Positions 13,401-37,517 of a DNA stretch of 64,000 nucleotides are shown in pieces. This DNA comes from Tridacna crocea (lineage: Eukaryota; Mollusca; Bivalvia; Cardiida; Cardiidae). Under the pieces are notes generated by a model that was given only the letters and a program-made list of their open reading frames with translations, did not search any database and had not been told where the DNA came from. Each line of letters opens with the position of its first letter. Positions within the stretch are counted from its first letter, which is position 1. The stretch covers positions 8,475,001 through 8,539,000 of the forward strand of contig OX031063.1 of assembly GCA_943736015.1 (NCBI GenBank), written 5' to 3'. The translations under genes were made by a program, and so were the position numbers.

Positions 13401-14607
13401 AAACGAAATTCTTTGTTTTTTAGTGTATCCATTAGCGAAAGAATTGAATTTACAAACTATTGTTTTAGATTTAGGGCTGTTATTTATTATTATTATTATT
13501 ATTATTGATGTACTGGTTGTTTTGCTTTTAATCCAATTTTTGAAAAATCAGTAATTTAGCGGAAAAAGTTGAGTCAATGCAAATCTGTCTTCACGCTTGA
13601 TATTTAGAGGTAAGTTACGTGTAATAACTATAGTACTCGTTTGTGACAAGAAAGAATTAACCGTCCTTTACTTTTGTTCTTACTTATTATATTTTTAGAC
13701 CAGAGAAGACCGCATCATGAAACAGTATGAATGTAAAGAATTGACGTCGAACAATACAGAACCTATAGAGCCAAAAGACTTAATAAATCTGATAGAAAAA
13801 GTGTTACACTGGCAGCAGGAGCTATCAGATGCTTCTCCTGTTTTGGTGCATTGTCCGTAAGTTATTTTTGTTTTGTTTTTCATCGCTGAAAGTACATATC
13901 AACATATACGCATAAATTGTGATGTCATCTGAACTCATTCGGCAGTTCTTCAGTTATCCTTTTTCTTCATTTTATTTTTCCATGAAATTTGATCTATAAA
14001 ATGAATGAACCAATCTTCATTTTAACAATCAGAGACAAGTGTGAGTTGTTGAACTCTTAAAATCATGACATGAAATTGGATCTATAAAATGAAGTTTATC
14101 TAAGAGCAGATTGATCATAAGGTAGAATAGTTCTCTAACCTATAAAAAAAAAATACAAAAAGGAGACGGAGCCATATCAGTCAGTGCAGACAAGGATACT
14201 TTTTGTGGGTGTGTTAAACTCCTTCTTTCTCAGAGGGTGGCCCTTTTCTTTTGATTTTAGATGATCTGTTTTTGACATGTTCTTTGTCTTTCAATATCTA
14301 ATCTTTTTCTAAATGGCAAAAATGTTCCTTGAATTATCTGTAAAGGGGCTAACAACGTTATTGCTTTTCTACTTACAGAACAGGAACTGAGATATGTGGA
14401 TTGGTTTGTATCCTCTTGAACGAGTTAAACAGAATGAAAAAACGTGGTGGGGTCTTAAATATCTTACAATCAGTCAAAACAATGAAAGCTAGAGATTTTG
14501 GAGTTGTTTCCGCTTACGTAAGTGATGCTTTGGTGGTCCATTTTCTTATTAGATCCATGTCCATTGAGCCAGCTCGACATTCCAGCTTAACCACCAGCTC
14601 AACAGCA

Positions 14608-14687
<80 letters not shown>

Positions 14688-16493
14688 AAAATCGATGTCC
14701 GTTGAGCAAACTCGCCATTGCAGCTCAACCCCAAGCTCAACAGTAAAAATACTCATACATATATTCGATCAATGTCCGTTGAGCCAGCTCGACATTACAG
14801 CTCAACCACCAGCTCAACAGCAAAAATACATATTTATGTCAAAATCAAAGTCCGTTGAGCCAGCTCGACATTCCAGCTCACCAGCCAGCTAATCAGTAAA
14901 AATACCAATACATTATGCTTCGATCAATGTCCGTTGAGCCAGCTCGAAATTCAAGCTTAATGGACAGCTGAACAGCCAAAATACATACATATATATGTCA
15001 AAATCAATGTCCGTTGAGCCAGCTCGACATTCCAACTTAACCGCCAGCTTAACAGCAAAAACAATAAAACTACATATATATGTCAAAATCAAATTCCGTT
15101 GAGCCAGCTCGACATTCTAGCTCAACCACCAGCTCAACAGCAAAAATACATGTATATGTCAAAATCAAAGTCTGTTGAGCCAGCTCGACATTCCAGCTCA
15201 TTGGCCAGCTCAACAGTTAAAATAATTAAACATATGTTTCGATCAATGTCCGTTGAGCCAGCTCGACATTCCAGTTCAACCAACAGCTCAACAGTAAAAG
15301 TACTTAAACACATGTTTCGATCAATGTCTGTTGAGCCAGCTCGATATCCCAGCTCAACCAACAGCTCAACAGCAAAAATACATATATATGTCAAAATCAA
15401 GAAGTCTGTTGAGCCAGCTTGACATTCCATCTCGACTGCCAGCTCAACAGTAAAAATACTTATACATATGTTTCAAAAAAGGCCGTTGAGCCAGCTGGAA
15501 ATTTCAGCTCAACCGCCAGCTCAACAGTAAAAATATTCATACATATGGTTCCGTCAATGTCTGATGATCCATCTCGACATTCCAGCTCAAAGGCTAGCTT
15601 AACAGCTCAACAGCCAAAATACATATACATGTCAAAATCAAAGTCTGTTGAGCCAGTTCGGCATTCCAATCCAACGGCCAGGTCAACAGGAAAAAATAAA
15701 TATACGTATCAAAATCAAAATCTTTTGAGCCAGTCGACATTCCAGTTCTTCCGCCAGCTCAACAGTAAAAATACTAATACATATGTTTCTATCAATGTTC
15801 GTTGTGCCAGCTCAACCACAAGCTAAAGAGCAAAAATACATATATATCTCAAAAATCAAACCTTCTTTTAGCCAGCTCGACAATCCAGCTCAACCGCCAG
15901 CTCTATAATAAAAATTCTCATACATATTTTTATTGTCTGTTGTGGCAGCTTAACATTCCAGCTCAACTGCCAGCTCAACAGCAACAATACATATATATGT
16001 CAAAATCGCAGTCTGTTGAGCCACCTCGACATTTCAGCTTAACCGCCAGCTCAACAATAAAAATACGTATACATATTTCCATCAATATCTGTTGAGCCAG
16101 CTCGACATTCCAGCTCATCAGTCAGCTCAACAGCAAAAATACATATATATGTTCTGAGCAAAGTAGGAATCGGGACAATTCCGGAATTGTCCTGCGCAAA
16201 GTAGGAATTCTCACTTTGTTGGGCAAAGTAAGAATTCCTACCTGGCACGGTTCAAAGTAGGAATCGGGACAAAGTGAGAATCTTTTGTTTTCCCTGCGAG
16301 GGGTGGGAATATATTTTCAGGATTGTGGGCCTTGTAGTTCAGAACCAATCACGGAGATGGTAATTAAACTAATAATTGGTTAATTATCTGCGTTTAATTA
16401 TGTTGATCAAAGGGGTTAAATATCATCCAGTATTTTACTTAGGAAGATTAATAGATTTGTTTTTCTCACTTGCGGTATGTCATTCGATCTGGA

Positions 16494-16532
<39 letters not shown>

Positions 16533-19500
16533 AAATAAATACATAAATAAATAGATAAACTCTTACAAACGCTTAAACATCTCCAGCCTTGACCGAAGCA
16601 CGTTGCTAAAGAAAATAAGACAAGAATTAGTTCAACAGCAGATATAAAATAAGGCCTCCTCTGTCCTATGGATACCGAATAAACGCAGTTCATACAATAA
16701 TAGACTTATCAAAAAATCTATGTAAAGTATGGGCATCAGTTTTAAGATGTAAGAAACGACGAGAAGAGAATCATGCTTACCAGAATGTAAAACCTTTGCA
16801 ACGTAACTATAATATTCTCACTTTACTCTATACCCTTTGAATTCTAACTTTGTCCACGCCTACTCCTAATTTGCGCAGGGACTATATCTGACCGTAATAC
16901 AATGTTTCTCCCTTGCGCAATTCTAGAATTGTCCGGTACAATTCCGGAGTGGACGGACAGAGTAGGAATTCCTACTTTGCGCAGGACATATATATGTCAA
17001 AATCAAAGTCCGTTAAGCCAGCTCGACATTCCAACTCAACGGCCAGCTCAACAGCAAAAATACATTTATATGTCAAAATCAAAATCCGTTCAGCCTGCTC
17101 GACATTCCAGCTCAACGGCCAGCTAAACAGCAAAAATAAATATATATATCAAAATCAAAATCCATCGAGCCAGATCATCATTCCAGCACAACCGCCATCT
17201 CAACAGCAAACATACATATATTTCAAAAAGAGAGTCCGTTGAGCCTGGTCAAGATTCCAGCTCAACGTCCAGCTCAACAGTAAAAATACTTATACGCATG
17301 CTTCAAACAATGTCCGTTTAGACACCTTGGAATTCCAGTTCAACGGCCAGCTAAACAGCAAAAATGGATATAAATGTGAAATCGAAATCCGTTTAGCCAG
17401 CTCGACATTCGAGTTGAACTGCCAGCTCAACAGTAAAAAATACTGATTCATATGTATCGAACAATGTCCGTTAAGCCAGCTCGACATTACAGCTCAACCA
17501 ACATAGGATATTCTAGCACATATACCAAAGCCCTAAAATATAGGCTGCTAAGCCAAAGTGTCAAAAATTCCTGACGTTTACGTGTTTCGTGACATTATTA
17601 GGACAGCACGTTATGAAAAAAACTATGCCGTTCTTTAATAAAAGTTCCACACTTTGAAAGGTGTATTCACTCATCTTTCAGAGGATAGGTAGCAATTGTC
17701 TGGCAGTTTACCACTCCAAGAACTGGCACACTCGATGGAATGCTTCATTACATCAATCTCACTATTTTTCTAACCAGAAAAAATGACTTCTTTTATCATG
17801 ACATCTTTCACTCTTAATCAAACAAGAAATTTCTGAGTAACAGAATAGCATTTTTCGTTTTCATCAGGAAATTTCAAACGTTAATAATCTTAAAGATTTA
17901 ACATTAGAATTTTCTAGAACACATACAGAAGCTTTAAACTTTATACTACTAAACCAAAGAGTCAAAGAGTCCTTACGTTCACGTGTTTCGTGGCATTATT
18001 ATGACAGCACGTTATGAAAAAACTATGCCGTTCTTTAATAAAAGTTTCACACATCGAAAAGTGTATTCTGTCAGCTTTCAGAGGATAGACACTAATTGTC
18101 TGCCAGCTGACCACTCCAAGAACTGGCACACTCGATGAATTGCTTCATTATATCAACCTTCCTATATTTCTAACCAGACAAAAAAAAACTGACTCATGCA
18201 AACAAGACATCTTTAACTCTTGATCAAACATAAAGTTTCTCAGTAACAGCTGGTCAATAGCATTTCCTTTTCTTTTTCATCGGAAGATTTGAAACATTAA
18301 TTGTCTTGAACATTAAAAAATAGAATTTTCTAGCACATAATTAAAAGCTTTAAACATAAGGCTATTAAGCAAAAGACTCAAAGGGTCTTGACGTTTACGT
18401 GTTTCGTGGCATCATTAAGACAGCACGTTATGAAAAAAACTATGCCGTTCTTTAATAAAAGTTTCACACATCGAAAAGTGTTTCCAGTTAGCTTTCACAG
18501 GATAGGCAGTAATTGTCTTGTAGTTGATCACTCCAAGAACTGGCACACTCGATGGAATGCTTCATTAAATCAACCTTCCTATGTTTCTAACTAGAGGAAA
18601 TAAACCGACGTACGCAAACAAGACATCTTTAATTCTTAATCATACCAGATATTTCTGAGTAACACGTTTTCGTTCGCAATTTTTCGTTTTCTTTAGGAAA
18701 TTTCAAACATTAATTGTCTTGACAATCAAAAATTAGAATCTGACACATATACAGAAGCCTTAAACTTTAGGCTACTAGGCCAAAAAGTCAAAGCTTCCTT
18801 TACGTTTACGTGTTTCGTGGCAATTTTATGATAGCCATTTCTGAACAAACTATGCCGTTCTGTAATAAAAGTTTCACACATCGAAAAGTGTTTTCAGTCT
18901 GCTTTTAGAGGATAGGCACTAATTGTCTGGCAGTTGACCACTTCAAGAACTGGCACACTCGATGGAATGCTTCATTTAATCAACCTTCCTATGTTTCTAA
19001 CCAGAGGAAATAAACCGACGTACGCGAACAAGACATCTTTAATTCTTAATCATACAAGACATTTCTGAGTAACACATTTTCGTCCGCAATTTTGCGTTTT
19101 CATTAGGAAATTTCAAACATTGATTGTCTTAAAAATTAAAAATTTAAATTTTTTAGCACATGAACAATAGCGATTAAATGAAGGCTAGTTAGCCAAATAC
19201 CCAATGAGTCCTGACGTTTACGTGTTTCGTGGCATTTTTAAAACAGCACCTTATGAAAAAACTATGCCGTTCTTTAATAAAAGTTTCACACATCAAAATG
19301 AGTATTCAGTCAGCTTTCAGAGGATAGGTAGTAATTGTCTGCCAGTTGACCACTCCAAGAACTTGCATACTCAATGATATGCTTTATTGAATGAACCTTC
19401 CTATGTTTCTATGCAGAAAAAAAAACGACGTTTTTCATTACGACATCTTAAACCCTTAATCAAACAAGACATTTTTTAGTATTATATGGTGAATAGCATT

Positions 19501-22500
19501 TTTTTGTTTTCATTAGAAAATTTCAAACATTAATTGGCTTTCAAATTAAGAATTAGAATTTTCAGGCGCATATACAGAAGCCTTACGCTTAGGCTACTGA
19601 GCCAGAAAAAAACGACATCTTTCAAGACATCTTTAACTTTTAATTAAACAAGAAATTTCTAAGTAACAGCTGGTGAAAAGCATTTTTCGTTTTCATTAGG
19701 GAATTTCAAACATTTATAATCTTAAAGATGAAAAAATTAGAATTTCCTAGAACATATACAGAAGCTTTAAACTTTAGGCTACTAAACCAAAGAGTCAAAG
19801 AATCCTTACGTTCACATATTCCATGGCATTATGAAAACAGCACGTTATGAAAAAATATACCGTTCTTTAATAAAAGTTTTACACATAGAAAAGTGTATTC
19901 TGTCAGCTTTCAGAGGATAGGCAGTAATTGTCTGGCAGTTGACCACTCCAAGAACTGGCATGCTCGATGGAATGCTTCATTAAATCAACCTTCTTATGCT
20001 TCTATCCAGAGATAAAACGACGTCTTTCTTCACGACATTTTTAACTCTTAATCAAACAAGAAATTTCTATGTAACAGCTGGTGAATAGCATTTTTTTCAT
20101 ATTCATCAGGATGTTTCAAACATTAAATGTCTTGAAAATTAGAAAGTAAAAAAAATTAGCACATATATAAACGGTTTAAACTTTAGGTTACTGGGCCTAA
20201 GATCAAAGAATCCTAACGTTTACGTGTTCTGTGGCATTATTTAGAAAGCACGTTCTGAAAAAACTATGTCGTTCTTAAATAAAAGTTTAACATATCGAAA
20301 TGAGTATTCAGTCAGCTTTCAGACAATACGTGGAAACAGTCTGACAGATGCCTACTCCAAGATCTGGCACACTCGATAGAATTCTTCATGAAATGAACCT
20401 TCCTATGTTTCTATCAAGAGCAAAAACGACGTCTTTCATCACGACATCTTTAATTCTTAATCAAACAAGAAATTTCTGAGTGAAACCTGGTCAATAGCAT
20501 TTTTATCGTTTCCATTAAGAAATTTCAAACATTATTGTCTTGGAAATTAGAGATCAAAAGGCATTTTTAAGACAGCACGTTATGAAAAAACAATGCCGTT
20601 CTTTAATAAACATTCCACACATCGAAAAGAATATTCTGTCAGCTTACAGAGGATAGGCAATAATTGTCTGGCAGTTGACCACTCTAAGAACTGGCACACT
20701 CGATGGAATGCTTCATTAAATCAACCTTCCTCTACCTCTAACCAGAAGAAAAAAAAAACCGACGTATGCGAACAAGACATCTTAAACTCTTAATCATACA
20801 AGACATTTCAAAGTAATATGTTTTCGTTCGTAATTTTTCGTTTTCATCAGGAAAATTCAATCATTTATTGTATAAACAGTTAAAAATCAAAATTTTCTGG
20901 CACATATACAGAAGCCTTAAACTTTCGGCTACTAGGCCAAAAAGTTAAAGATTCCTGACGTTAACATGTTTCGTGGCAATTTTATGATAGCACTTTCTGA
21001 ACAAACTATGCCGTTCTTTAATAAAAGTTTCACACATCGAAAAGTGTTATCAGTAAGCTTTCAGAGGATAGGCAGTAATTGTCTGGCAGTTGACCACTCC
21101 AAGAACTGGCACACTAGATGGAATCATCATTAAATGAACATTCCCGTTTCTGACCAAACAAAAACAACGCGCGCGCGATCAAGACATCTTTAACTCTTAA
21201 TCAAACAAACGATTTCTAAATAACACATGGTCAATAGCATTTTTTTCATTTTCATTAGGAAATTTCAAACAATAATAATTCTCTTGCAAACCAAATGTTA
21301 GGATATTCTAGCACATTTACCAAAGCCCTAAAATTTAGGCTGCTAAGCCAAAGTGTCAAAAATTCCTGACGATTACGTGTTTCGTGACATTATTAGGACA
21401 GCACGTTATGAAAAAACTATGCATTCTTTAATAAAAGTTCCACACATTGAAAGGTGTATTCACTCATCTTTCAGAGGATAGGTATTTATTGTCTGGCAGT
21501 TGACCACTCCAAGAACTGGCACACTCGTTGGAATGCTTCATTGCATCAATCTCCCTATGTTTCTAACCAGAAAAAACGACGTCGTTTATCATGACATCTT
21601 TCACTCTTAATCAAACAAGAAATTTCTGAGTAACAGCTGGTGAATAGCATTTTTCGTTTTCATCAAGGAATTTCAAATGTTAATTATCTTAAAGATTAAA
21701 ATTTAAAATTTCCAGAACAAATACAGAAGCTTTAAACTTTAGGCTACTAAACGAAAGAGTCAAAGAGTCCTTACGTTCACGTGTTTCGTGGCATTATCAT
21801 GACAGCACATTATGAAAAAACTATGCCGTTCTTTAATGAAGTTTCACACATCGAAAAGCGTATTTAGTCAGCTTTCAGAGGATAGGCAGTAATTTTCTGG
21901 CAGTTCACCACTCCAAGAACTGGCCCACTCTATGGATTGCTTCATTATATCAACCTTCCTATATTTCTAACGAGACAAAAAAAAAAAAAAACCTGACGCA
22001 TGCAAACAAGACATCTTTAACTCTTGATCAAACAAAAAATTTCTCAGTATAAGCTTGTCAATAGCATTTCCTTTTCCTTTTCATCGGAAAATTTGAAACA
22101 TTAATTGTCTTGAACATTAAACAAGAGGGCCAAGATAGCCCTGGATCGCTCACCTGAATTTTTGAGAGGACCATAGCCTTTTATAAGAAGGTATTGAAAC
22201 ACAACAAAATCACTATTTTGCCAAGCAATTTTTAAAAGGTAACCAGTAAAAGTCCTTTCAAAATCTGGCCATCAGTTTCAGAAAAGAAGAATTTATAGGA
22301 CTTTCTTAATTTCCGTACTGTGCAAGTAGCCCCCATTTACCAGAGCCATGTCCCTTGACCTATCAAAATTTCGCGAACAAATTTTGATAAAAGTCATTCA
22401 AGGAATATTTCCGTGAAATAATTTTCAAATCCGACCAGCCGTTTAAGAGAAGAAGAATTTTCAAGAAATTCTTCATTTCAATATAGTGCAAGTAGCCCCC

Positions 22501-25500
22501 ATTCACCAGAGCAATGTTTCTCTTCGAATCAAACTTTCACGAACAATTTTTGAAAACGATCACCCAAGGAATATCTCTGTGAAAATTTTCCAAAATCTGA
22601 CCAGCCGTTTCAGAAAAGAAGAATTTTTAAGAATTTCTTCCTTGCCATATAGTGCAAGAAGCCCCCATTCACCAGAGCTATGTTTCTTGACGAATCAAAA
22701 TTTCACGAACACTTTTTGAAAAGGGTCATCCGAGGAACATCTCTGTGAAATTATTTCAAAATCTGACCGCATTCACCAGAGCCAAGTTTCTTTACGGACC
22801 AAAATTTCACGAACAAATTTTGAAAAGGGTCACCCAAAGAACATCTCTGTGAAATTATTTCAAAATCTGACCAGCGGTTTCAGAGAAGAAGAATTTTTAA
22901 GAATTTCTTCATTTCTGTATATTGCAAGAAGCCCCCTTTCACCAGAGCCATGTTTCTTGATGGATCAAAATTTCGCGAACAATTTTTGAAAAGGGTCACC
23001 CAAGGAACATGTATGTGAAGTTATTTCAAAGTCTGGCCAGCGGTTTCAGAGAAGAAGAATTTTTAAGACTTCCTTCATTTTTGTATAGTGCAAGAAGCCC
23101 CCATTCACCAGAGCCATGTTTCTTGACGGATCAAAATTTCACGAACACTTTTTGAAAAGGGTCACCCAAGGAACATCTCTGTGAAATTATTTTATAATCT
23201 GGTCAGCGGTTTCAGAGAAGAAGATTTTTAAATAATTTCCTAAAAAAATCCATTTTGTTGCCATGGCAACCAGAGTTTTTGACGGAATCAAATTCTGTGA
23301 ACTCTTTTCAAAGGGGACCTCCCAAGGAACATTCCAGCCAAGTTTGGTCCAAATTGTCCCAGCAGTTTATGAGGAGTTGATGTTTAAAGAATTGTTGACG
23401 ACGCAAGACGCGCGACAGACGACACACGACGGACGACGGACACGGGGTGATTCTAAAAGCTCCCCTTGAGCACGTTGTGCTCAGGTCAGCTAAAAATAGA
23501 ATTTCCTAGCACATTATTAAAAGTTATAAACATTAGGCTATTAAGCCAAAGACTCAAAGGGTCCTGACGTTTACGTGTTTCGTGGCATCAGCACGTTATG
23601 AAAAAACTATGCCGTTCTTTAATAATAGTTTCATACATCGAAAAGAGTATTCAGTCATCTTTCAGAAGATAGGTATTAATTGTCTTGCACTTGGCCACTC
23701 CAAGAACTGGCACACTCGATGGAATACTTCATTAAATCAACCTTCCTATGCTTCTATTCAGAGAACAAACGACGACTTTCTTCACGACATCTCTAACTCT
23801 TAATCATACAAGAAATTTCTGAGTAACAGCTGGTGAATAGCATTTTTTATATTCATCAGGAAATTACAAACATTAAATGTCTTGAAAATCAAAAAGTAAA
23901 AATTTTTAGCACATATACAAACGCTTTAAACTTTAGGTTACTGAGCCAAAGATCAAAGAGTCCTAACGTTTACGTGTTATGTGGCATTATTTAGAAAGCA
24001 CGTAATGAAAAAACAATGCCGTTCTTAAATAAAAGTTTCATATATCGAAAAGATAAAAACAACTATGCCGTTCTTTAATAAAAGTTTCACATATCGAAAG
24101 AGTATTTACACATCTTTCAGAGTATAGGCAGTAATTGTCTGGCAGTTGACCACTCCAAGAACTGGCACATTCGATGGAATGCTTAATAAAATCAAACTCC
24201 CAATATTTCTAACCAGACGAAAAAAACTGATGCGTGCAAACAAGACATATTTAACTCTTAATCAAACAACAAATTTCTCAGTAACAGCTGGTCAATAGCA
24301 TTTCTTTTCATTTTTATCAGAAAATTTGAAACATTTATTGTCTTGAACAATAAAAAATAGAATTTTCTATCACATATATAAAAGCTATAAGCATTAGGCT
24401 ATTAAGCCAAAGTCTCAAAGGGTCCTGACGTTTACGTGTTTTATGTCATCATTAAGACAACACGTTATGAAAAAACTATGCCTTTCTAAAAAAAAGATCC
24501 ACACATCAAAAAGGGTATTCAGTCATCTTTCAGAAGATAGGTGGTGATTGTCTGGCAGTTGACCACTCCAAGAACTGGCACACTCGATGGAATGCTTCAT
24601 TAAATCAACCTTCCTATGTTTCTATCCAGAGGAAAAACGACGTCTTTCATTACGACATCTTCAACTGTTAATCAAACAAGAAATTCCTGAGTTACAGCTG
24701 GTGAATGGCATTTTTCATATTCATCAGGAAGTTTCAAATATTAAATGTCTTGAAAATTAAAAACTAAAGATTTTTAGCACATAAACAGAAGCTTTAAACT
24801 TTAGGTTACTGAGCCAAAGATCAAAGATTCCTTACCTTCAAGTGTTTCGTGGCATTTTTAAGACACCACTTTATGAAAAAACTATGCTGTTCTTTCATAA
24901 AAGTTCCACACATCGAAAAGAGTATTCAGTAAGCTTTCAGAGGATAAGCAGTAATTGTCTGGCAGTTGACCACTCCACGAACTGACACACTCGATAGAAT
25001 GCTGCTTTAAATCAAACTTCCTATCTAACAAGAAAAAACCGACGTTTGAGAATAACACATCTTTAATTCTTAATCATTCAAGACATTTCTCAATAACAGG
25101 TGGTCGTTGGCAATTTTTCATTTTCATTAGGAAATTTCAAACATTAATTGTCTTGAAAATTAAAGTTTAGAAATTTCTAACACATATACAGAAGCTTTAA
25201 ACTTAAGGCTACTAAGCCAAAGACCCAAAGAATCCTGACGTTTACGTGTTTCGTTGCATTATTAACCCTTTACTCCATAGAAACTCATTTCTACGCATTG
25301 CTTGTAGGAGCCTCTGGAAAACACTGTGGCAAAAGGTGAAATTGCTCTTGTCGAGGAATTCCACCTTTTGCCACAATGTTTTCTTTGCTATAAAAAGGTG
25401 TCATATACAAATAAGAAACTGCTTCATCCTTGCTGCTATTTAGGGACAATTATAGATACCACACAAATGTGAAATTATTAAGACACAAATGCATTATAGG

Positions 25501-28500
25501 GTAAAGGGTTAAGACAGCACTTTATGAAAAACCTATGCGAGTTTTTAATAAAAGTTTCACACATCGGAAAGAGTATTCACTCATCTTTTAGAGGATAGGC
25601 AGTAATTGTCTGGCAGTTGACCACTCCAAGAACTGGCACACTCGATGGAATGCTTCATTAAATCAACATTCCTGTTTCTAACCAGACAAAAAAAAACGGC
25701 TCGTGCGAACAAGACATCTTTAACTCTTGATCAAACAAAAGATTTCTGACTAACACATGGTCGATAGCATTGTTTTCGTTTTCATTAGGAAATTTCAAAC
25801 ATTAATTGTCTGAAAATTAAATGTTAGGATTTCCTAGCATATATACCAAAGCCCTAAAATTTAGGCTGCTAAGCCAAAGTGTCAAAGAGTTCTGACGTTT
25901 ACGTGTTTAGTGAAATTATTAAGACAGCACGATATGAAAAAACTATGCCGTTTTTTTAATAAAAGTTCCACACTTTGAAAGGTGTATTCACTCATCTTTC
26001 ATAGGATAGGTATTTATTGTCTGGCAGTTGACCACTCCAAGAACTGGCACACTCGATGGAATGCTTCATTACATCAACCTCCCTATGTTTCTAACCAGAA
26101 GAAAACGACGTCTTTTATCATGACCTCTTTAACTCTTAATCAAACAAGAAATTTCTGTGTAACAGCTGGTCAATAGCATTTTTCATTTTCATCAGGAAAT
26201 TTCAAACATTAATTATCTTAAAAATAAAGAATTAGAATTTTCTAGAACATATACAGAAGCTTTAAACTTTATGTTACTAAACCAGAGAGTCAAAGAGTCC
26301 TTACGTTCACGTGTTTCGCTGCATTATTACGATAGCGCGTTATGAAAAAAATATGTCCTTCTTTAATAAAAGTTTCAAACATCAAAAAGTGTATTCAGTC
26401 AGCTTTCAGAGACTAGGCAAGAATTGTCTGGCAGTTGACCACTCCAGGAACTGGCACACTCGATGGAATGCTTCATTTATCAACCTTCCTATGTTTCTAT
26501 CCAGACAAGAAACCGACGTATGCGAACAAGACATCTTTTACTCTTAATCAAACAAGAAATTTCTGAGTAACAGGTGGTCGTTCGCAATTTTTTGTTTTCA
26601 GCAGGAAATTTCAAAAATTAATTGTCTCGAAAATTAAATAATAGAATTTCCTGGCACATATACAGAAGCTTAAACTTTAGGCTACTAAGCCAAAAGGTTA
26701 AAGAGTCCTGACGTTTACGTGTTTCGTGGCATTATTAAGACAGCATGTTATGAAAAAAATTTGCCGTTCTTTAATAAAAGTTTCACAGATCGAAAAATGT
26801 TTTCAGTCAGCTTTCAGAGGATAAGAAATCATTGTCTGGCAGTTGACCACTCCAAGAACTGGCACACTGGAATGCTTCATTAAATCAACATTCCCATGTT
26901 TCTAACCAGGAGCAAGAAGAACGACGTATTTTGATTTTGACATATATATGAGCGCGGATCTGGGAAAAGGTGCCTTATGGCCAAAATTTTCGGTTTTTGT
27001 TTTTTTGCATTTTATTAAAGGGAGTTCATTTCTGTCTGATGTGTTTATCATTTTTCATCGATATGATGTATAGTTTCGGAGATATGCACGTTTAAATACA
27101 GGCACCCTCCACAATGCGTTTTGTTAACGAACGTCACGTCAGCGACGTCAATTCTAAAACGCAGTAAAATGCGTACATTTTGTCAGTGGGTGTGAAACGT
27201 CAATGTAAAAACACATCTCTACATGTTTTTCTTGAGTTTGTTCCTTGATTTAATCCAAGGATTAAACGACAACGAGACGCTGTTTAGCTACCTGATTACC
27301 TAGGCAGTTTGCCAAGCATTAGGAGAAGAAAAACAAACAAACAACATAAATTATTCCTTGTTACTGAATGTAATGTTAAAAACAATGAGCATATTCATAT
27401 GACATATTCGGAATGATTTAAATCATATTCAATAAAGAAACTACCAAACAGCAATTACTATTTACGTGATATAAAAAAAAATACATACGGAATATAACGT
27501 TGTAGTGAATTTCTTTGTGTTTGTAATTAATTCGTGGAGCATAAGAAAATTTGACGTCGCGCGATGTCAAAATTTTCTTACGCTGAGAGAAGTAAACACA
27601 AGCACCATGAAAGTTACTACAACACAATATTCGTTTTTATATACCTATAAAAAAGACAACATACTTTGATTTTGACATACATATGTATTTTTGCTGTTGA
27701 GCTGGCTGTTAAGCTGGAATGTCGAGCTGGCTCAACGGACTTTGATTTTGACATATATATGTGTATTTGAGCTGTTCAGCTGACTCTCGAACTGGAATGT
27801 CGACCTGGCTCAATGGACATTGATCGAAAAAAATGTAGAAGTATTTTTACTGTTGAGCTGGGGGTTGAGCTGGAATATCGAACTGGCTCACAGGACTTTG
27901 ATTTAGACATGGATATGTATTTTTGCTGTTGAGCTGGCCGTTGAACTGGAATGTTGAGCTGGCTCAACGGACATTGATCGAAACATATGTATTTTAATGT
28001 TGTGTTGATGGTCCAGCTGGCTAAACGGACTGATTTTGACATATAGATGTATTTTTGCTGTTGAGCTGGCCGTTGAGCTGGAATGTCGAGCTGGCTCGAC
28101 GGACTTTGATTTTGACATGTAGATGTATTTTTGCTGTTGAGCTGGCCGTTGAGCTGTAACGTCGCGCTATCTTAACGGACATTGATCGAAACAGGTGTAT
28201 AATTTTGTTTACTGTTGATCTGGCGTTAAGCTGGAATGGGCTGGCTCAACGGAATTTGATTTGACATATGTCTGTATTTTTGCTGTTGAGCTGACCGTTG
28301 AGCGAGGATGTCGAGCTTGGTCAGCGGACATTGATTTAAACATACATGTATATGTATTTTTACTGTTGAGCTAGCGATTGAGCTCGAATGTTGAGCTGGC
28401 TCAACGGACAAGGATCTAGTATTTTTGCCGTGGAGCTGGTGGTTGAGCTGGAATGTCGAGTCGGCTCAACGGACATTGATCGAAATATATGTATAAGTAT

Positions 28501-31500
28501 CTTTACTGTTGAGATAGCGGTTGAGCTGGAATGTCGAGCTGGCTCAACAATCATGGATTTAATATTTTTGCTGTTGAGCTGACCGTTGAGCTGGAATGTC
28601 GAGCTGGCTCAACGGACATTAATCGAAACATATGTATAAGTATTTTTACTGTCGAGCTGGCGGTTGAGCTGGAATGTCGGAATGTCGAGCTGATTCAACG
28701 GACTTTGTTTTTGACATATATATATATATATGCCCGTTCAGCTGGAATGTCGACCTGGCTAAATAGACTATGGTTTAGACATATATATGTATTTTTGCTT
28801 TTGAGCTGGCCGTTGAGCTGGAATGTAGAGCTTGCTCAACGGACATCGGTAAAAGCATATGTACAAGTATTTTATCTGTTGAACTGGCCGTTGAGCTGGA
28901 ATGTCGAGCTGGCACGACGGACTTTGATTTCAACATATAGATGTATTTTTGATGTTGAGCTTGCCGTTGAGCTAGAATGTCGCGCTGTCTTAACGGACAT
29001 TGATCGAAGCAGATGTATAATTTTGTTTATTGTTGATCTGGCCGTTAAGCTGGAAAGAGCTGGCTCAACGGAATTTGATTTCACACATTTATGTATTTTT
29101 GCTGTTGATCTGACCGTTGAGCTCGAATGTCAAGCTTAGTCAGCGGGTATTGATTAAAATATTTGTATAAGTATTTTTACTGTTGGGCTAGCCTTTGAGC
29201 TCGAATTTTGAGCTGGCTCAACGGACATGGATCTAGTGTTCTTGCTGTGGAGCTGGTGATTGAGCTGGAATGTCGAGCCGGCTCAACGGACATTGATCGA
29301 AACATATGTATAAGTATTTTTACTGTTGAGATAGCGGTTGAGCTGGAATGTCGGGCTGGCTCAACAATCATGGATCTAATATATTTGCTGTTGAGCTGGC
29401 CGTTGAGCTGGAATGTCGAGCTGGCTCAACGGACATTGATCGAAACATATGTATAAGTATTTTTTACTGTCGAGCTGGCGGTTGAGCTGGAATGTCGGAA
29501 TGCCGAGCTGACTCTACGGACTTTGTTTTTGACCTATATATATGCCCGTTCAGCTGGAATGTCGACCTGGCTAAACAGACTTTGGTTTTGACATATATAT
29601 GTATTTTTGCTGTTGAGCTGGCTGTTGAACTGGAATATCCAGCTTGCTCAACGGACATCGATCAAAGCATATGTACAAGTAATTTAACTGTTGAGCTGTC
29701 GTTGAGCTGGAATGTTGAGCTGACTCAGCGGACTTTGATTTTGACATATATATTTATTTATTTTGGCTGTTCAGCTGCCCGTTCAGCTGGAATGTCGACC
29801 TGGCTAAATAGACTATGGTTTTGACATATAAATGTATTTTTGCTGTTGAGCTGGCCGTTGACCGGGAATGTAGAGCTGGCTCAACGGATATCGATCGAAG
29901 CATATGTATAAGTGTTTTAACTGTTGAGCTGGCCGTTGAGCTTGAATGTTGAGCTGGTTGATTTGATTTTGACATATATATATCTTCAATAATGTTTTAT
30001 GGTTCAGAACTATGGGGTCTAAGTGAATTTGAATGTGTTGAAAAAGTGAACACATACTGTTTGAAGCGCTTCATGTCAGTGCCATTGAAAACAATTAATG
30101 ATGCTGTTCGGGGTGATACCGATAGATTCCCTATGTATATATATTCCTCAAAGCGAGCCATTAAGTACTGGTTACTTATCATAGACTTCCCAAGAAACCG
30201 AATTGTAAAAATGTGTTACGAAATACTACAACTATTTGACAGTTTGGGCTATCATAACTGGGTTAGCCAGGTACGCATAAATTTATCAATTGACGGATTT
30301 GCTTTTATATGGGACAATCAAGGTGTTGATAACGTGTCGGCTTTTCTAAAAGCTTATTTACAGAGACTAAAAGATCAATATATTCAAATATGGAGAGACA
30401 GGTGTAGCAATAGCTCAAAGTTGAATAGTTATATCAGTTTTAAAGCAGAGTTTTCGTATGAGCTGTATTTAGATTTAGTTGATGTGGGTAAGTTCAAGAA
30501 AGCCATTGCAGCGTTCAGAACTTCCTCGCATCAACTAATGCTGGAAAAAGGGAGAGAACTTGGTCTACCCATAGAAGAAAGGATGCGTCCCTTGTGTAAC
30601 TTAAGTGTTGAAACAGAGTTCCATTTTCTTTTGGAATGTGCGTATTACAATGATATACGCTATAACTGTATACTACAATTCTATTGGAACACTCCAAAGG
30701 AAGAAAAATTCAACATGTTATGAGCACCGAATCTTTAATCAAACACTTATATATGTATATATTTCATGCTACTGAAAGGAAAATAAAGCAGACTGTAAAG
30801 AAAATAACCAGATTAAGCACTACATCACATCTATGTCATTATGTTTTTCTGTATATTTAATGTGTTTGGGCCGGTGGCCATATCATTAATCAATAAAGTA
30901 AAAATTGTATATCTGAGAATGCTTTAAGGCTTGAAACAAGCAGACATATATACTCATTTTACCATTTTTAATGTTAAATTAATTTTAGTTATAATATTTA
31001 ATCTTTAATCTAAATGTGAATCAGTATATCTCTAATAGTTTTCTCAGATTCCCAGCGAAAAAGTACATCTGGGTCTTCAAAATGGTTAATTTGAATAAAA
31101 ACTTTTGAAAACCTAAGGGAAGAGGAATTGACTCGTTTTGCTCTTAATGACTTGTTTTGCCCTCTTTTTTTCTATCTTCCCTGTATTACAGGCATGTTTT
31201 CTATAACTCATTAGAACCTGTTTTCTCTTAGGTCTTAACGTGCAATTTATTTATTATCCTTTTCAAACACGATCCTGAGTTTCAACAACCCTTAAGAAGA
31301 CATCTTTGAGAACATCATGAGAAAAGGAGAAAATGCTGGTAAACAATATCTGCCTCGTGATCGACAATAACTCCTAACCTATAAAAGATGAACACGATCA
31401 TTTAAACAACATTTATTATCTGCAGTACTTTCAATATGGGACACATCTAAAATCGTGTCTTCTGGTAGAGAACTTATCTGCTAATTGATGCCGCAGCTGT

Positions 31501-31750
31501 TTTGTCAATACTTTATGGGATTTTTGGTCTAGTTTCGAACAGAAAAGGTGTGAATGGAAACTTCTAAAATTGAAATCAATAAAGATAATTTAAATACCAG
31601 CATTGTGTATTTAAATACTGTATTATTGCTTAAATCGCTTTTATTGTCATTTTGATACAGGAGCAGTACCTCTTTCTCTTTGAAGTGATTCGCTGCTATC
31701 TGGAGGATGGAGAAGTTTATGCTAATGTCAAAGAGAACTTGTCTTCGTAA
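1284..31750 (+). CDS. Receptor-type protein tyrosine phosphatase, C-terminal (D2) exons, 5' partial
   Basis: Five exons join in phase to 211 residues plus a stop: 1284-1418, 2358-2471, 13699-13856, 14379-14517 and 31661-31750. The product reads like the second phosphatase domain of a receptor-type tyrosine phosphatase. An FW..I...DV..IV strand (EFWSLIQQCDVKIIVSL) comes first, then VHCPTGTEICG at the signature loop, then a QSVKTMKARDFGVVSAYEQY helix pair and a short tail ending ENLSS. In active enzymes the loop is HCSAGVGRTG. Here the cysteine is kept, but isoleucine replaces the arginine, and no WPD motif is seen between residues 84 and 140. The domain is therefore predicted to lack catalysis, as is usual for D2 domains, which act in substrate or partner binding on the cytoplasmic side. 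The extracellular part, membrane span and D1 must lie left of the window. The introns of 11.2 and 17.1 kb are filled with repeats. Confidence 0.85.
1495..1816 (+). repeat. Degenerate TTAA-type MITE, possibly two fused copies
   Basis: It contains two rounds of the motif 'ttttgacaaccctga ... gaaaacat.gtggg..aaggagaaaa' and the usual end (tgcaaatgctc...gtcgtct). It directly abuts the better copy that follows. Confidence 0.5.
1817..2036 (+). repeat. TTAA-type MITE (about 220 bp)
   Basis: It starts CTCTTTACCACAC and ends GTAAAGAG, flanked by TTAG and TTAA. Its core is the palindrome typical of this family, with AAGGAGAAAATGCTG facing CAGCATTTTCTCCTT. The family has many copies in the window. The best-proven one lies at 25266-25508. 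Confidence 0.7.
2358..2471 (+). CDS. RPTP D2 exon
   Basis: 38 codons between TTTTAAG and GTTGGT, phase 0 at both ends. The read is ERTCFHLDTNLMSVFNLTLL and then EETVNGSHMERTLTYKSK. Of the other two frames, the one checked contains a stop. The beta-strand pattern FNLTLLEE...RTLTY fits the middle of a D2 domain. Confidence 0.75.
2700..3506. repeat. Tandem X-box units, left block
   Basis: Diverged repeats of about 170-200 bp contain ccatggaaac/ccatggcaac cores, 'atttagccatagaaa.cag' and 'agcaaaggtgcatatgaaaaatacatata'. The same units resume at 7182, after the inserted 3.7-kb element. Confidence 0.65.
3512..7176. mobile_element. 3.67-kb element with about 525-bp TIRs and 5-bp target duplication
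   Basis: The left TIR (3512 to about 4040) and right TIR (about 6635-7176) are nearly identical over about 525 bp. Both ends read CACTGTGTTGTAAGC inward. AGTTT flanks both ends (3507-3511, 7177-7181). Removing the element and one AGTTT restores a unit resembling the neighbouring repeat at about 2950-2985, so the insertion is real and young. Inside the TIRs, GGTTTAGACACA recurs. The 2.6-kb centre has short open stretches only and no recognisable transposase. Confidence 0.8.
7182..8000. repeat. Tandem X-box units, middle block
   Basis: About five units of 140-180 bp carry GTAACCATGGCAAC (7326), GTTTCCATGGCAAC (7504), GTTACCATGGCAAC (7665 and 7836) and GTAACCATGGTTAC (7978). Confidence 0.7.
8009..10327. 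mobile_element. Composite nested repeat with degenerate TIRs and internal tandem units
   Basis: The left end (ttagctgtactggctgg...gcttatatcatgg) and the complement of the right end (ttagatccactggcagg...gcttatgtcatgg) are similar over about 47 bp. Inside are about five roughly 150-bp units (8080-8720, 'gataaagtctgcatttgtggccag...'), three roughly 170-bp units (9270-9640), a GACGGACGGAC run near 9705 and a CGCCGTTTTGGCG hairpin at 9738. The exact ends are uncertain and two elements may be fused. Confidence 0.45.
9775..10560 (+). repeat. Direct duplication with about 552-bp period
   Basis: The stretch at 9775-9990 (aacatgccatgaactatacatgg ... atgatatgatatgct) recurs at 10327-10560 with about 85-90% identity by eye. 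The second copy continues into further X-box units. Confidence 0.6.
10561..11300. repeat. Tandem X-box units, right block
   Basis: X-box-like palindromes lie at 10621, about 10799, about 10979 and 11183 (GTTGCCATGGTAAC), spaced by about 180-200 bp. The block runs up to the right TIR of the 8.7-kb element. Confidence 0.65.
11556..11821. mobile_element. 266-bp MITE with 9-bp target duplication
   Basis: TATAATGAT flanks both ends (11547-11555, 11822-11830). The termini are inverted (TGGCCCGCAACACGCG). Each arm carries a GC-rich hairpin, GTCTCGGAT.AGCCTGCGC with GCGCAGGCT.ATCCGAGAC. The 9-bp duplication and TIRs would fit a Mutator-like source, which is inference. Related copies lie at about 41596-41805 and 63480-63735. 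Confidence 0.75.
11831..13698. other. RPTP intron remainder
   Basis: AT-rich sequence without a supported gene. It includes an ATT microsatellite at 13481-13506 and a weak inverted copy of the TTAA-MITE core at about 13160-13330. Confidence 0.5.
13481..13506. repeat. (ATT)n microsatellite
   Basis: About eight ATT repeats inside the phosphatase intron. Confidence 0.85.
13699..13856 (+). CDS. RPTP D2 exon carrying the start of the signature loop
   Basis: 52 codons plus 2 nt (phase 0 to 2), with acceptor TTTTTAG and donor GTAAGT. It ends SDASPVLVHC with the first two bases of proline, so the loop codons are split by the next intron. The usual WPD region is replaced by CKELTSNNTEPIEP. Confidence 0.87.
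14379..14517 (+). CDS. RPTP D2 exon, degenerate HC(X5)R loop
   Basis: One base completes the proline, then 46 codons starting TGTEICGLVCILLNELNRM and ending ARDFGVVSAY. Acceptor is CTTACAG and donor GTAAGT. The position of the invariant arginine is isoleucine. A 17.1-kb repeat-filled intron follows. Confidence 0.88.
14610..14684. repeat. (AC)n(AT)n microsatellite
   Basis: About 15 AC repeats run directly into about 23 AT repeats, replacing the 'acatatatatg' part of a minisatellite unit. The expansion probably began there. Confidence 0.95.
16152..16984. mobile_element. 0.83-kb inverted-repeat element inside the minisatellite
   Basis: The ends carry inverted copies of 'gcgcaaagtaggaattc' and 'acaattccggaattgt', and minisatellite sequence (acatatatatg) resumes on both sides. 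It contains a CT microsatellite at 16499-16529. A target duplication cannot be separated from the motif present in every satellite unit. No coding region was seen. Confidence 0.6.
16499..16529. repeat. (CT)n microsatellite
   Basis: About 15 CT repeats within the element inserted in the left minisatellite array. Confidence 0.95.
22122..23490. mobile_element. 1.37-kb 'caagagggcc' element inserted in the satellite
   Basis: It starts caagagggccaagatagccc and ends cacgttgtgctcaggtcagc. TAAA flanks both ends (22118-22121, 23491-23494) and intact satellite units show the empty site (cattaaaaaatag). Inside are about six units of roughly 160 bp (agcccccattcaccagagc ... ccagcggtttcagagaaga). The end module 'gctcagg.gagcta' is shared with about 32480-33035 and 42968-43560. 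It appears non-coding. Confidence 0.75.
25266..25508. mobile_element. TTAA-flanked MITE with proven empty site
   Basis: Its 243 bp begin CCCTTTACTCC and end GGTAAAGGG, with TTAA at 25262-25265 and 25509-25512. Other satellite units read 'gcattattaagacagc' without it, so TTAA is the target and the element moved as a unit. TTAA targets and CCCTTT-type ends fit a piggyBac- or Kolobok-mobilised MITE, which is inference. Confidence 0.85.
26951..27660. other. 0.7-kb unique block inside minisatellite sequence
   Basis: It is flanked on the left by 'tttgattttgacatatatatg' (26930-26950) and on the right by 'ctttgattttgacatacat', both of the inverted minisatellite type, so it looks inserted. It contains CpG-bearing parts (aacgtcacgtcagcgacgtca) and a TGACGTCGCGCGATGTCA palindrome near 27552. 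No protein was recognised. Confidence 0.5.
27664..29970 (-). repeat. 78-bp minisatellite, right array, inverted
   Basis: About 29 units have the complement of the left-array consensus (ctgttgagctggccgttga, gctggaatgtcgagctggc, tcaacggactttgattttg). The two arrays thus form inverted arms around the 410-bp satellite. Open frames on both strands come from the repeat period. Confidence 0.9.
29981..30942 (+). mobile_element. 5'-truncated LINE (non-LTR retrotransposon) 3' end
   Basis: An open stretch of 243 codons (29992-30723) matches the end of a LINE ORF2 downstream of the reverse transcriptase. It has FYGSELWG near the start, KRAIKYWLLI in the middle, and a C-terminal LCNLSVETEFHFLLECAYYN knuckle. 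A 3' UTR of about 200 bp contains ggccggtggccatatcatta and AATAAA. The reverse transcriptase and endonuclease are absent through 5' truncation. GACATATATA at 29971-29980 and 30943-30952 could be the target duplication. A CR1/L2-like clade is a guess. Confidence 0.8.
29992..30723 (+). CDS. LINE ORF2 C-terminal fragment
   Basis: 243 residues with no internal stop. The first ATG lies inside the ORF2 reading, so it is not a real start. The C-x2-C-type residues near the end (LCNLS...LLECAYYND.R) are typical of the tail that follows the reverse transcriptase in many animal LINEs. An open frame this long suggests a fairly recent insertion. It would not make a functional transposition enzyme alone. 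Confidence 0.75.
   Translation: MFYGSELWGLSEFECVEKVNTYCLKRFMSVPLKTINDAVRGDTDRFPMYIYSSKRAIKYWLLIIDFPRNRIVKMCYEILQLFDSLGYHNWVSQVRINLSIDGFAFIWDNQGVDNVSAFLKAYLQRLKDQYIQIWRDRCSNSSKLNSYISFKAEFSYELYLDLVDVGKFKKAIAAFRTSSHQLMLEKGRELGLPIEERMRPLCNLSVETEFHFLLECAYYNDIRYNCILQFYWNTPKEEKFNML
31225..31480 (+). repeat. Degenerate TTAA-type MITE
   Basis: It keeps 'gagtttcaacaaccct', 'agaaaaggagaaaatgctgg' and the terminal 'ctgcagtactttcaatatg'. It lies just upstream of the last phosphatase exon. Confidence 0.5.
31661..31750 (+). CDS. RPTP last coding exon
   Basis: The exon follows TTTGATACAG and encodes EQYLFLFEVIRCYLEDGEVY, ANVKENLSS and stop TAA. The EQY.F motif is the conserved final helix of PTP domains. 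It joins in phase 0 to the exon 17.1 kb upstream. Confidence 0.85.
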   Translation, partial: EQYLFLFEVIRCYLEDGEVYANVKENLSS

Positions 31751-33822: not shown

Positions 33823-35535
33823 TATTACATTCATGAATCAATTGCTCGATTTCTTTTTATTTTCTAGCATGTTTAAAAACTAAAAACGAAAAAATCTTAT
33901 CTCCATTCGACACAACTGTTTTCCGCGGGTAAACGTCACGTTCATGACGTCATTCATCATCAAGATCGTAAAGCTGCATATCATTGTAAAAAGATGTTAC
34001 CATTATCACACTGATCAACGTGAGCCGCGGACACCATGTGTTCTCCGTACACCAGATCGAATTTCCCATGGAAGAACCGGAGGTGGTGTAAGTATTTTCA
34101 TTTTTATGGACCTGATTAACCTAGATAGAAATGTTGATTTACAGCAATGTCAAGACGAATGATTGATCTATTTACATACATACTAGGGAATAATAATACC
34201 ATCATATAAGCGAGCTGTGGCTTTATGAGCAACTGGGGTCTTATTGTTTTGAAGTTTGTTGCCGATTTTCGGACAAAATCCCCAAACCATTGTTCATTTT
34301 ACAAGTTTGTATGATAAGATAAATGTATTCCCTAAAGGAACACAAAATTTCACTTAGAAATGTCCATCCAAAGCGAAGATATACGTTTTTGAATGGACCG
34401 GGTAGAGGAAAATATGCTAACAAGACACCATTTTCATTTTCAGAGTATGTACATGGACACCAGATCAGGAAAAGCTTGTGGTAACTGGACACCAACCTTT
34501 AAATCATCAATATATCTGCCTGAAACTCGATGCATGGCTGTATACGAAGACTATTTTTGTAAACATTATGTCACTACGGTCCATTTCCTGATAAAGAGCA
34601 TGTTCAACGCAATTTCATTACTTGTAGCACTTGCTTTTTTGAAATATTTGCAAAGTTACGGCAATTTACGAAGTAGACCTACGATGCTTGATCACAATTG
34701 ACCGGTCATTGCCTCCAATGTTGGTGCAAGACATGTTCTTTTTTTAAAGCGTTTCAGTTTTATGAATGGCGTATTAACCCATTACCACGCAATCAGAAGC
34801 TTTAATGTCCCTGGGAAAGATGGCTTCGAAAAACATTGTCTATAAAGAAAAACCCCTATTAACTAATACAGAGTGTACATTTTTTACCACATTTGGCCTG
34901 ATTCTTAGTTTAAATAATTTTCAAATCCGCTTGGCCAAATGCCAGCGGGCTCTTAGAATGGCATTCTACCCTTCGTACATTTGCATGCGTCCGTTTGTTC
35001 GTCTACGAGTTTATTTTTAAATTTTTTATTTAATTGACTTCTCCTCAGAAACCACCAAGTGGAAATCAACAAAATTCAAACGTGGATGATTCCATAAATT
35101 TCTTTCGAGATACTTCGATCCTTTAAAAAAGATGGCTTATGTGGAAGGAGCTTATTTTCCGTGTACAGCGCGTTGTGAAAATTGTAAAATTTGTCCTCTC
35201 AAAGAACTCAATCACGAGATTGGCATTGGGTAGCGTTCTATCACATTCCTTCAATAAATTTTGATCTGCTGAAAAAACATGGCTTTTGTTGGTGGGACTT
35301 ATTTTCTCTTTGTGTCATAAAGCGGAAGTACTTGCAGCTCTTTAAATAAATTCATTGATAATACAAGTATGTAGATCTACATGTATTTCATAACACAGAT
35401 GATCACTGATAATGTTTCATTTTATCCAATATGCTAGGTGATCATGATGTATGAGATATTAATCTTTATTGTTACAAACTTACATAGTTCTTGGAAATGT
35501 AGCATTAGTGATCAGAAATAGTTTTGTACGTAGTG

Positions 35536-35992
35536 TTAGGAAATTATTAGAGAGGTTAATTGCAGCCATGGCAAATTTCTAAATTAAATCTTTTCTGAAA
35601 TTCGTCATTTATAAAAAATAAACCACGTCTAGTTCCTGTTTCGGTTTTTTTTATTTCGCTTTATTTACAAAACCATGACGAAACAGACTGTGTATCAGAA
35701 CAATTACGCTCGAAGAAATAGAATTAGACAGCAAATTCTGCGGCAGTCTGCAATTTGAACTCACCACTGTTGGAGGGTCTGATGACCTCTCCAATAAATT
35801 TCAGCTATACGAAATACAGTAAAACCTGGCATGTTGGCCACCTGTATTAAGCAAGCAACCTGAATAAACAAACATACATGTAGTTCCCGACAAATAGCAA
35901 TGCACAGACATTCATCTGTATCAAGCAAGCACCTGCCTTTGGCAAGCTCTTTTGACCGTCCCTTTGATAATATGATTAATATAGGTTGAACT
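35536..35992. other. Spacer of the giant foldback
   Basis: It contains a repeat at 35675-35820 (cagactgtgtatcagaac ... gatgacctctccaataa) that recurs inverted at about 47705-47830. The rest holds a loose repeat of 'caagcaagcacctg'. No coding region was seen. Confidence 0.5.
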
Positions 35993-37517
35993 GTAACTAT
36001 TTCTGATCACTAATGCTGCATTTCCAAGAACTGTGTAAGTTTGTAACAATAAAGATTAATATCTCATATATCGTGATCACCAAGCATATTGGATAAAATG
36101 GAACATCAGTGATCATCTGTGTTATGAAATACATGTAGATCTACATACATAATGCATGTATTATCAATGAATTTATTTAAAGAGATGCAAGTACTTCCGC
36201 TTTATGACACAAAGAGAAAATAAGTCCCACCAACAAAAGCCATGTTTTTCAGCAGATCAAAATTTATTGAAGGAATGTGATAGAAAGCTACCCAATGCCA
36301 ATCTCGTGATTGAGTTCTTTTGAGGGGACAAACTTTACAATTTTCACAACGCGCCGTACACGGAAAATAAGGTCCTTCCTCATAAGCCATCTTTTTTAAA
36401 GGATCGGAGTATCTCGAAAGAAATTTATGGAATCATCCATGTTGAATTTTGTTCATTTGCATTAGGTGGTTTCTGAGGAGAAGTCAATTAAATAAAAATT
36501 TTAGAAATAAAAGCGTAGACGAACAAATGCGCGCATGCAAATGTACGAAGGGTAGAATGCCATTCTAAGAGCCCGCTGGCATTTGGCCAAGCGGATTTGA
36601 AAATTATTTAAACTAAGAATCAGGCCAAATGTGGTAAATAATGTACACTCTGTATTAGTTAATAGGGTTTTTTCTTTATAGACAATGTTTTTCGGAGCCA
36701 TCTTTCCCAGGGACATTAAAGCTCCTGATTGCGTGGTAATGGGTTAATATGCCATTCATAAAACTGAAACACTGTAAAAAATGAATATGTCTTGCACCAA
36801 CATTGGAAGCAATGACCGGTCAATTGTGATCAAGCATCGTAGGTCTACTTCGTAAATTGCCGTAACATTGCAAATATTTCAAAAAAGCAAGTGCTACAAG
36901 TAATGAAATTGCGTTGAACATGCTCTTTATCAGGAAATGGACCGTAGTGACATAATGTTTACAAAAATAGTCTTCGTATACAGCCCATGCATCGAGTTTC
37001 AGGCAGATATATTGATGATTTAAAGGTTGGTGTCCAGTTACCACAAGCTTTTCCTGATCTGGTGTCCATGTACATACTCTGAAAATGAAAATGGTGTCTT
37101 GTTAGCATATTTTCCTCTACCCAGGTCCGTTCAAAATCGTATATCTTCGCTCTGGAAGGACATTTCTAAGTGAAATTTTGTGTTCCTTTAGGGAATACAT
37201 TTATCTTATCATACAAACTTGTAAAATGAACAATGGTTTGGGGATTTTGTCCGAAAATCGGCAACAAACTTCAAAACAATAAGACCCTAGTTGCTCATAA
37301 AGCCACAGCTCGCTTATATGATGGTATTATTATTCCCTAGTATGTGTGTAAACAGATCAATCATTCGTCTTGACATTGCTGTAAATGAACATTTCTATCT
37401 AGGTTAATCAGGGCCATAAAAATGAAAATACTTACACCACCTCCGGTTCTTCCATGGGAAATTCGATCTGGTGTACCGAGAACACATGGTGTCCGCGGCT
37501 CACGTTGATCAGTGTGA

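What the first reader, a model, noticed from the sequence alone, without database searches (positions are those of the whole stretch)
14548..29970. Mirror-image minisatellites bracketing a second satellite inside one intron
About 27 units of a 78-bp minisatellite, about 9.4 kb of a 410-bp satellite, then about 29 minisatellite units in reverse orientation all lie in a single phosphatase intron. If transcribed, the two minisatellite arms (about 2-3 kb each) could pair into long double-stranded RNA. In DNA they make a quasi-palindrome with a 10-kb loop. Such a layout could arise from a transposon whose ends were minisatellite-bearing, or from inversion.
Basis: partly seen in the sequence, partly recalled or inferred. 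Interest (0 to 1): 0.72.

Follow-up and report, generated by a model that had tools for sequence, protein, structure and literature searches.

The report
Broken foldback transposon with satellite inside
The two mirror-image repeat arrays are best read as the arms of an old, damaged copy of a common foldback-type jumping gene in an intron, with a separate satellite DNA array lodged between them; the layout is real but of a known kind.

Summary
In detail: 27 plus-strand units of a 76-78 bp repeat, about 9.4 kb of a ~410-bp satellite and 30 minus-strand units lie in one modelled 17.1-kb intron of a tyrosine-phosphatase-like gene. The mirrored minisatellite is not peculiar to this locus. It is the arm pair of a foldback-type DNA transposon family. 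At other loci copies share a terminus (GGGTCCGTGAAGTTGGC...), their arms run + then - (17 of 17 mirrored elements in 23 fetched loci), and 8 of 11 both-ended copies have flanks matching at 8 or 9 of 9 bases, against 3 of 110 mismatched pairs. In 14 of those 17 the arms lie about 60 bp apart or less. Here both outer ends are lost and several elements are nested inside. The 410-bp satellite is independent: absent from 20 other minisatellite loci, and three other 410-bp arrays have no minisatellite in the flanks read. No transposase of this family was found. Arm RNA can pair in silico. Whether the satellite was inserted, captured, or simply flanked by two half-elements is unresolved.

The parts
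14518..31660 (+). modelled intron of a tyrosine-phosphatase-like gene that contains the parts below
   Evidence: GTAAGT at 14518 and AG at 31659-31660, phase-0 join; PTP exons upstream on the same strand
14548..16152 (+). left foldback arm, outer part: 20 units; outer terminus missing
   Evidence: no terminus match in the window (hits starting in its first 12 bases) or in 14000-30500
16153..16985. MITE-like insert in the left arm (ends CAAAGTAGGAATTCC-like, by eye)
   Evidence: interrupts the + units; 180-bp related stretch at 82% in L022
16986..17502 (+). left foldback arm, inner part: 7 units
17503..26926 (+). ~410-bp satellite array; abuts the left arm directly
   Evidence: junction limits
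22128..23500 (+). 166-bp-repeat element nested in the satellite (Helitron/Helentron-like by recall; ends by eye)
   Evidence: 84% match over 588 bp in L015
26927..26941 (-). 15 bases that read like a minus-oriented unit; possibly a sliver of the right arm, possibly part of the next insert or of its target
   Evidence: sequence; 7 of the listed copies of the next insert also match leftward into this stretch
26942..27650 (.). ~710-bp transposon present in many copies
   Evidence: 39 other scored places at 89-97%; 18 of the 40 listed matches start exactly at 26942
27662..29981 (-). right foldback arm: 30 inverted units; outer terminus missing
29982..30723 (+). open frame that looks like the end of a LINE reverse transcriptase (by eye, recalled); adjoins the right arm
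   Evidence: 253-aa open frame from 29962; no Pfam match at E<=1

Best explanation
The mirrored minisatellites are the two arms of an old, non-autonomous foldback-type DNA transposon. Shown at other loci: a conserved outer terminus, tandem-unit arms that run + then - and mostly meet near the centre, and mostly 9-bp target duplications. Shown here: both outer termini are gone and several repeats are nested inside. Inferred: the units multiply a binding site for a transposase acting in trans (as reported for Galileo) and the element moved by cut-and-paste, perhaps with a MULE-type enzyme. Inferred: an array of an unrelated 410-bp satellite came to lie at its centre, by insertion or by capture during repair of a break near the palindrome centre. 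No function for the host is indicated.
For: 78-bp arrays lie on many chromosomes (177 matches, a lower bound). Outer ends align to GGGTCCGTGAAGTTGGCTCAACG.... A 100-base terminus query had 1166 first-look candidates; the 40 best were scored, each 97-99% identical at its best match. With ends allowed to slide by up to 3 bases, 8 of 11 both-ended copies have 8 or 9 of 9 flank bases matching, against 3 of 110 mismatched flank pairs. All 17 mirrored elements in 23 fetched loci run + then -; by eye so do 16 of 19 further, unfetched clusters in the cut listing, the other 3 showing one strand. Copy lengths run from 276 bp (L042) to 5768 bp (L017, a nested mariner-like element included). The terminus contains the unit's core. 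The satellite is unlinked elsewhere; the left arm-satellite junction is spanned by no other listed match.
Against: This copy has no recognisable outer terminus and no target duplication, so its membership rests on the arms. One both-ended copy, L018, has no duplication (3 of 9). The two window arms are among the least alike (rank 33 and 34 of 35), which also fits two different elements; but L017, complete with an exact duplication, ranks 14 and 32. On the right, satellite and arm are separated by the ~710-bp insert, and the 15-base sliver may not be arm DNA. No transposase of the family was found. Six of 20 10-kb loci show only one arm in the stretch read, so half-elements may be common.
Confidence: 0.82

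Rival explanations
1. Two separate foldback half-elements lie on either side of a satellite array and only look like one element.
For: Single-arm copies occur (6 of 20 loci in the stretch read); the two window arms are less alike than most arm pairs; satellite and right arm are separated by another insert.
Against: The left arm abuts the satellite directly and the arms have the + then - order of one element; the three other main 410-bp arrays have no such arms in the flanks read.
Confidence: 0.22
2. An inverted duplication or chromosomal inversion turned one minisatellite array round.
For: The arms are inverted copies.
Against: The same + then - layout recurs in 17 mirrored elements at other fetched loci, with shared ends and mostly 9-bp duplications.
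Confidence: 0.03
3. The arrangement is an assembly misjoin inside repeats.
For: Arms and satellite are repetitive; the exact junctions are found only here among listed matches.
Against: The host gene model reads through on both sides in phase; satellite stretches within the window are only about 77-91% alike, diverged enough to assemble.
Confidence: 0.07
4. The arms are kept as a source of intronic double-stranded RNA (editing, small RNA or splicing control).
For: One 600 x 600 nt arm pair gains 298 kcal/mol on pairing, against 8.5-19.6 for 5 random pairs; longest exact complementary runs 45, 44 and 43 nt.
Against: A foldback copy has this property whether or not it is used; the arms are only about 73% complementary; no transcript data were available.
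Confidence: 0.05

Closest known systems
Tetris, foldback transposon of Drosophila virilis (PMC4079207: abstract and first parts of Results and Discussion read)
   Same: Non-autonomous; inverted ends with tandem repeats inside a flanking terminal domain; 8-10 bp target duplications; repeat and terminal domain share a stretch; variable middle; no transposase found.
   Different: Repeat is ~220 bp there, 76-78 bp here. There the foldback's own repeats expand into satellite; here an unrelated satellite lies between the arms.
Galileo (P superfamily, foldback-like; PMC3573991 and PMC3688188: abstracts and outlines read)
   Same: Long internally repetitive inverted ends; copies range from nearly complete to two-TIR and solo-TIR; the repeats hold transposase binding sites.
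   Different: Galileo's transposase is known; none was found here.
Tm1, Mutator/Foldback family of root-knot nematodes (PMC3169594: abstract and outline read)
   Same: Composite inverted ends of variable length, 9-bp duplications, MITE-like copies.
   Different: Copies with a Phantom-type transposase are known there.
Rehavkus elements (PMC6446971: passages read)
   Same: 9-bp duplication; a minisatellite next to a terminal inverted repeat.
   Different: Transposase with PHD finger; none is linked to this family.
Helentrons with satellite-like central repeats in Pacific oyster (PMC7492417: abstract and outline read)
   Same: Mobile elements carrying tandem arrays; a possible model for the nested 166-bp-repeat element at 22128-23500 (resemblance recalled, not tested).
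   Different: Satellite-like repeats are central in the element; inverted minisatellite arms are not described in the abstract.

Membership tests
Foldback-type transposons | long inverted arms made of tandem repeats | tested here: met
   + array then - array in the window and in 17 mirrored elements at other fetched loci
Foldback-type transposons | conserved outer terminus and target-site duplication (family, other copies) | tested here: met
   sliding test 8 of 11 copies at 8-9 of 9 against 3 of 110 mismatched pairs; L018 fails
Foldback-type transposons | outer terminus and duplication on this window copy | tested here: not met
   no terminus found in the window; read as lost ends of a decayed copy
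Mutator/MULE superfamily | MULE transposase encoded by a copy of the family | tested here: inconclusive
   none seen in the copies read; of 61 Pfam MULE matches three loci were fetched and none has this family's terminus or unit at E<=1
Mutator/MULE superfamily | 9-bp target duplication | tested here: met
   not exclusive to MULEs
Rehavkus | transposase with PHD finger | not tested
   no autonomous copy found
Transposon with the 410-bp satellite as a regular part | satellite present in other copies of the element | tested here: not met
   none in L013-L032 except a 40-bp match in L028

The most novel reading that the evidence does not exclude
The centre of a foldback element is a fragile palindrome that breaks and takes up foreign DNA in repair, and here it acquired a 9.4-kb satellite array from elsewhere: foldback centres as landing places that let satellites leave their home regions and settle in genes.
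Probability: 0.2. Interest if true: 0.5.

Novelty: new member of a known kind. Interest (0 to 1): 0.3.

Why it matters
It shows that an odd 'mirror' array is one copy of a widespread foldback family, and it offers an example of an unrelated satellite lying between foldback arms inside a gene. The copies read, from about one unit per arm (L042) to about 35 (L017, L031), would allow the growth of such arms to be compared.

Tried and rejected
Autonomous copy. The open frame in the loop of L017 is a mariner-like transposase (Pfam DDE_3, E 2.4e-9) with its own inverted ends starting at TA (by eye), so a nested element. Open frames in L024 and L028 belong to one protein family (39-47% alike) without a Pfam match above its cut-off; a 99% identical copy elsewhere (L039, 7 kb) has no arm units or terminus, so it is read as an unrelated transposon. 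L022 has an open frame with a Ulp1-protease match below cut-off, not followed. Pfam MULE: three of 61 matches were fetched; L043 and L044 have inverted ends of other short tandem motifs; none of L043-L045 matches this family's terminus or unit, and the ends of L043 and L044 do not exceed shuffles (L045 not in that test).

Donor of the satellite: window stretches match the C13 array at 41.30 Mb at about 78-83% and each other at about 77-91%, so no donor can be named. Shared flanks of the 410-bp arrays: the output was long and cut and showed mostly common repeats; only the few matches cited were used.

Arm-relationship test: 36 arms with at least 5 units; shorter arms dropped. Arms of one element are not reliably nearest relatives even in complete copies, so it does not decide between one element and two.

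Species: not identified; a bivalve is a guess from recalled repeat types.

Full report
The window is C8:8475001-8539000 of a 1.05-Gb genome in 31 contigs. The finding is real. A one-unit profile gives 27 plus-strand units of 76-78 bp (14551-17502, with an insert at 16153-16985) and 30 minus-strand units (27678-29970); a ~410-bp satellite lies between, from 17503 to about 26926. The arms are about 73% identical as inverted copies over 1.5 kb.

Host gene. An exon ending at 14517 before GTAAGT and an exon starting at 31661 after AG join in phase into a tyrosine-phosphatase-like end, giving a 17,143-bp intron that holds the whole structure. This is a model by eye and splice signals. The exon at 13702-13854 matches Y_phosphatase weakly (E 0.023, below cut-off) and the exon at 14353-14559 has no Pfam match; three PTP exons above cut-off lie just upstream on the same strand.

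What the arms are. The 78-bp repeat has 177 matches in the genome search, a lower bound. I fetched 20 loci of 10 kb and three smaller ones chosen by terminus (L040-L042). Outer ends of most arms align to a common terminus, GGGTCCGTGAAGTTGGCTCAACGCTCAGTAATCG..., which runs into the first unit; several arms lack it. Mirrored elements in these 23 loci number 17: L014, L016, L017, L018, L019, L021, L022 (first), L023, L024, L025, L027, L030 (two), L031, L040, L041 and L042. All 17 run + then -. Odd spots: a single flipped unit inside one arm of L017, and in L030 two complete elements follow each other. L029, with only weak units on one side, was left out. Six loci show one arm only in the stretch read (L013, L015, L020, L026, L028, L032). 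Of 19 further clusters in the cut listing, read by eye and not fetched, 16 run + then - and 3 show one strand.

Target duplications. Eleven copies have both ends. With ends allowed to slide by up to 3 bases, the best 9-base match of a copy's own flanks is 9 in four copies, 8 in four, 7 in two and 4 in one (L018); among 110 mismatched flank pairs 3 reach 8, 14 reach 7 and none reaches 9. With fixed ends the own matches are 9, 8, 9, 3, 8, 6, 7, 8, 2, 7 and 2, the two values of 2 being L040 and L042, whose end was one base off; mismatched pairs peak at 2-3, and 12 of 110 reach 6 or more, so 6 of 9 (L027) is weak. For L014 I had moved the right end seven bases outward by eye, to a GGGTAAC end, before the test. 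Copies range from 276 bp (L042, about one unit per arm) to 5768 bp (L017, which includes a nested mariner-like element). This is the anatomy of foldback transposons. The terminus query had 1166 first-look candidates; the 40 best were scored, at 97-99% identity. The family is therefore large, and the best copies are alike; the scored ones are a selected sample.

The window copy is a wreck. No terminus was found on either side (for hits starting in the first 12 bases of the terminus; for 14000-30500). The right arm runs into an open frame that looks like the end of a LINE (by eye; Pfam gave nothing). The ~710-bp insert at about 26942-27650 has 39 other scored copies at 89-97%. Eighteen of 40 listed matches of the junction query begin exactly at 26942, but seven begin further left, inside the 15 bases that I first read as a sliver of the right arm. 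That sliver may belong to the insert or to its target, so direct contact of satellite and right arm is not shown. In mending this I lowered the best explanation from 0.85 to 0.82 and raised the two-half-elements rival from 0.20 to 0.22.

The satellite is a separate thing. The other main 410-bp arrays, at C10:24.55 Mb, C13:34.58 Mb and C13:41.30 Mb, have no 78-bp unit or terminus in the flanks read, about 2.7-3.4 kb on each side. Smaller related arrays on C13 and C7 were not examined. None of the 20 10-kb 78-bp loci holds the satellite, apart from a 40-bp match in L028. In the listed matches only this locus spans the left junction (listing cut) or the right one. In 14 of the 17 mirrored elements the arms lie about 60 bp apart or less; the exceptions are L017 (mariner-like element), L024 (an unrelated transposon and other DNA) and L031 (1.8 kb, unidentified).

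How it worked. The unit contains a 9-bp stem (CCGTTGAGC...GCTCAACGG; RNA fold z -4.2 against shuffles), while the terminus alone folds little better than shuffles (z -1.2). The unit core also lies in the terminus. In Galileo, repeats in the long ends hold extra transposase binding sites (PMC3688188, abstract), and the authors of Tetris suggest a similar scenario (PMC4079207, part of the Discussion read). I infer the same here. No transposase was found. Two of three MULE loci read in this genome (L043, 515-aa open frame; L044, 432-aa open frame) have inverted ends built of short tandem motifs, but of different sequence, so a MULE-type enzyme is plausible and not shown.

RNA pairing. In one 600 x 600 nt test the arms gain 298 kcal/mol by pairing, against 8.5-19.6 for five random pairs from the window. 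A copy of this family would be expected to do so in any case; nothing shows a role.

What stays open is how the satellite came between the arms. Insertion into, or capture at, the centre of one element is the simplest reading. Two half-elements flanking an older array is the main rival: the two arms are less alike than most pairs (rank 33 and 34 of 35), though that test does not separate known single elements well (L017 ranks 14 and 32; L024 ranks 35 and 3).

Literature. The listings of searches held foldback elements in flies and nematodes and satellite-bearing Helentrons in oyster, and I saw in them no title or abstract start about a foldback element with a foreign satellite between its arms. 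Seven papers were opened: PMC4079207 (abstract, parts of Results and Discussion), PMC6446971 and PMC8268682 (passages), PMC3573991, PMC3688188, PMC3169594 and PMC7492417 (abstract and outline). The species here is unknown, so no claim of first report is made.

Noticed in passing
33999-38535: A second large inverted repeat: 1.5-kb arms at 95.8% identity (33999-35523 / 35995-37524), followed by a self-palindrome at 37518-38535, 89%.
   Followed up: no
3511-4041 and 6646-7177: Inverted repeat of 532 bp at 96% identity.
   Followed up: no
46588-46914, 55402-55731, 59099-59371: Fasciclin-domain open frames, the first on the + strand and the other two on the - strand (Pfam).
   Followed up: no
13846-14400: The phosphatase model would read VHC-PTGTEICG across the intron before 14380: the catalytic loop seems shortened and lacks the usual arginine, so the domain may be inactive or a micro-exon was missed (by eye).
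   Followed up: no
48318-48461 and 50412-50578: Tandem units that are themselves partly palindromic (AATGACCC...GGGTCATT, TACGTA).
   Followed up: no
L043 (C9:57329000-57334500) and L044 (C9:39098500-39103500): MULE-type loci with 515-aa and 432-aa open frames whose inverted ends are tandem copies of a short motif (GGACGTTTTGGCCAC; CCCATTTCGCCCAA); L043 also has a 155-bp tandem array after the gene.
   Followed up: partly
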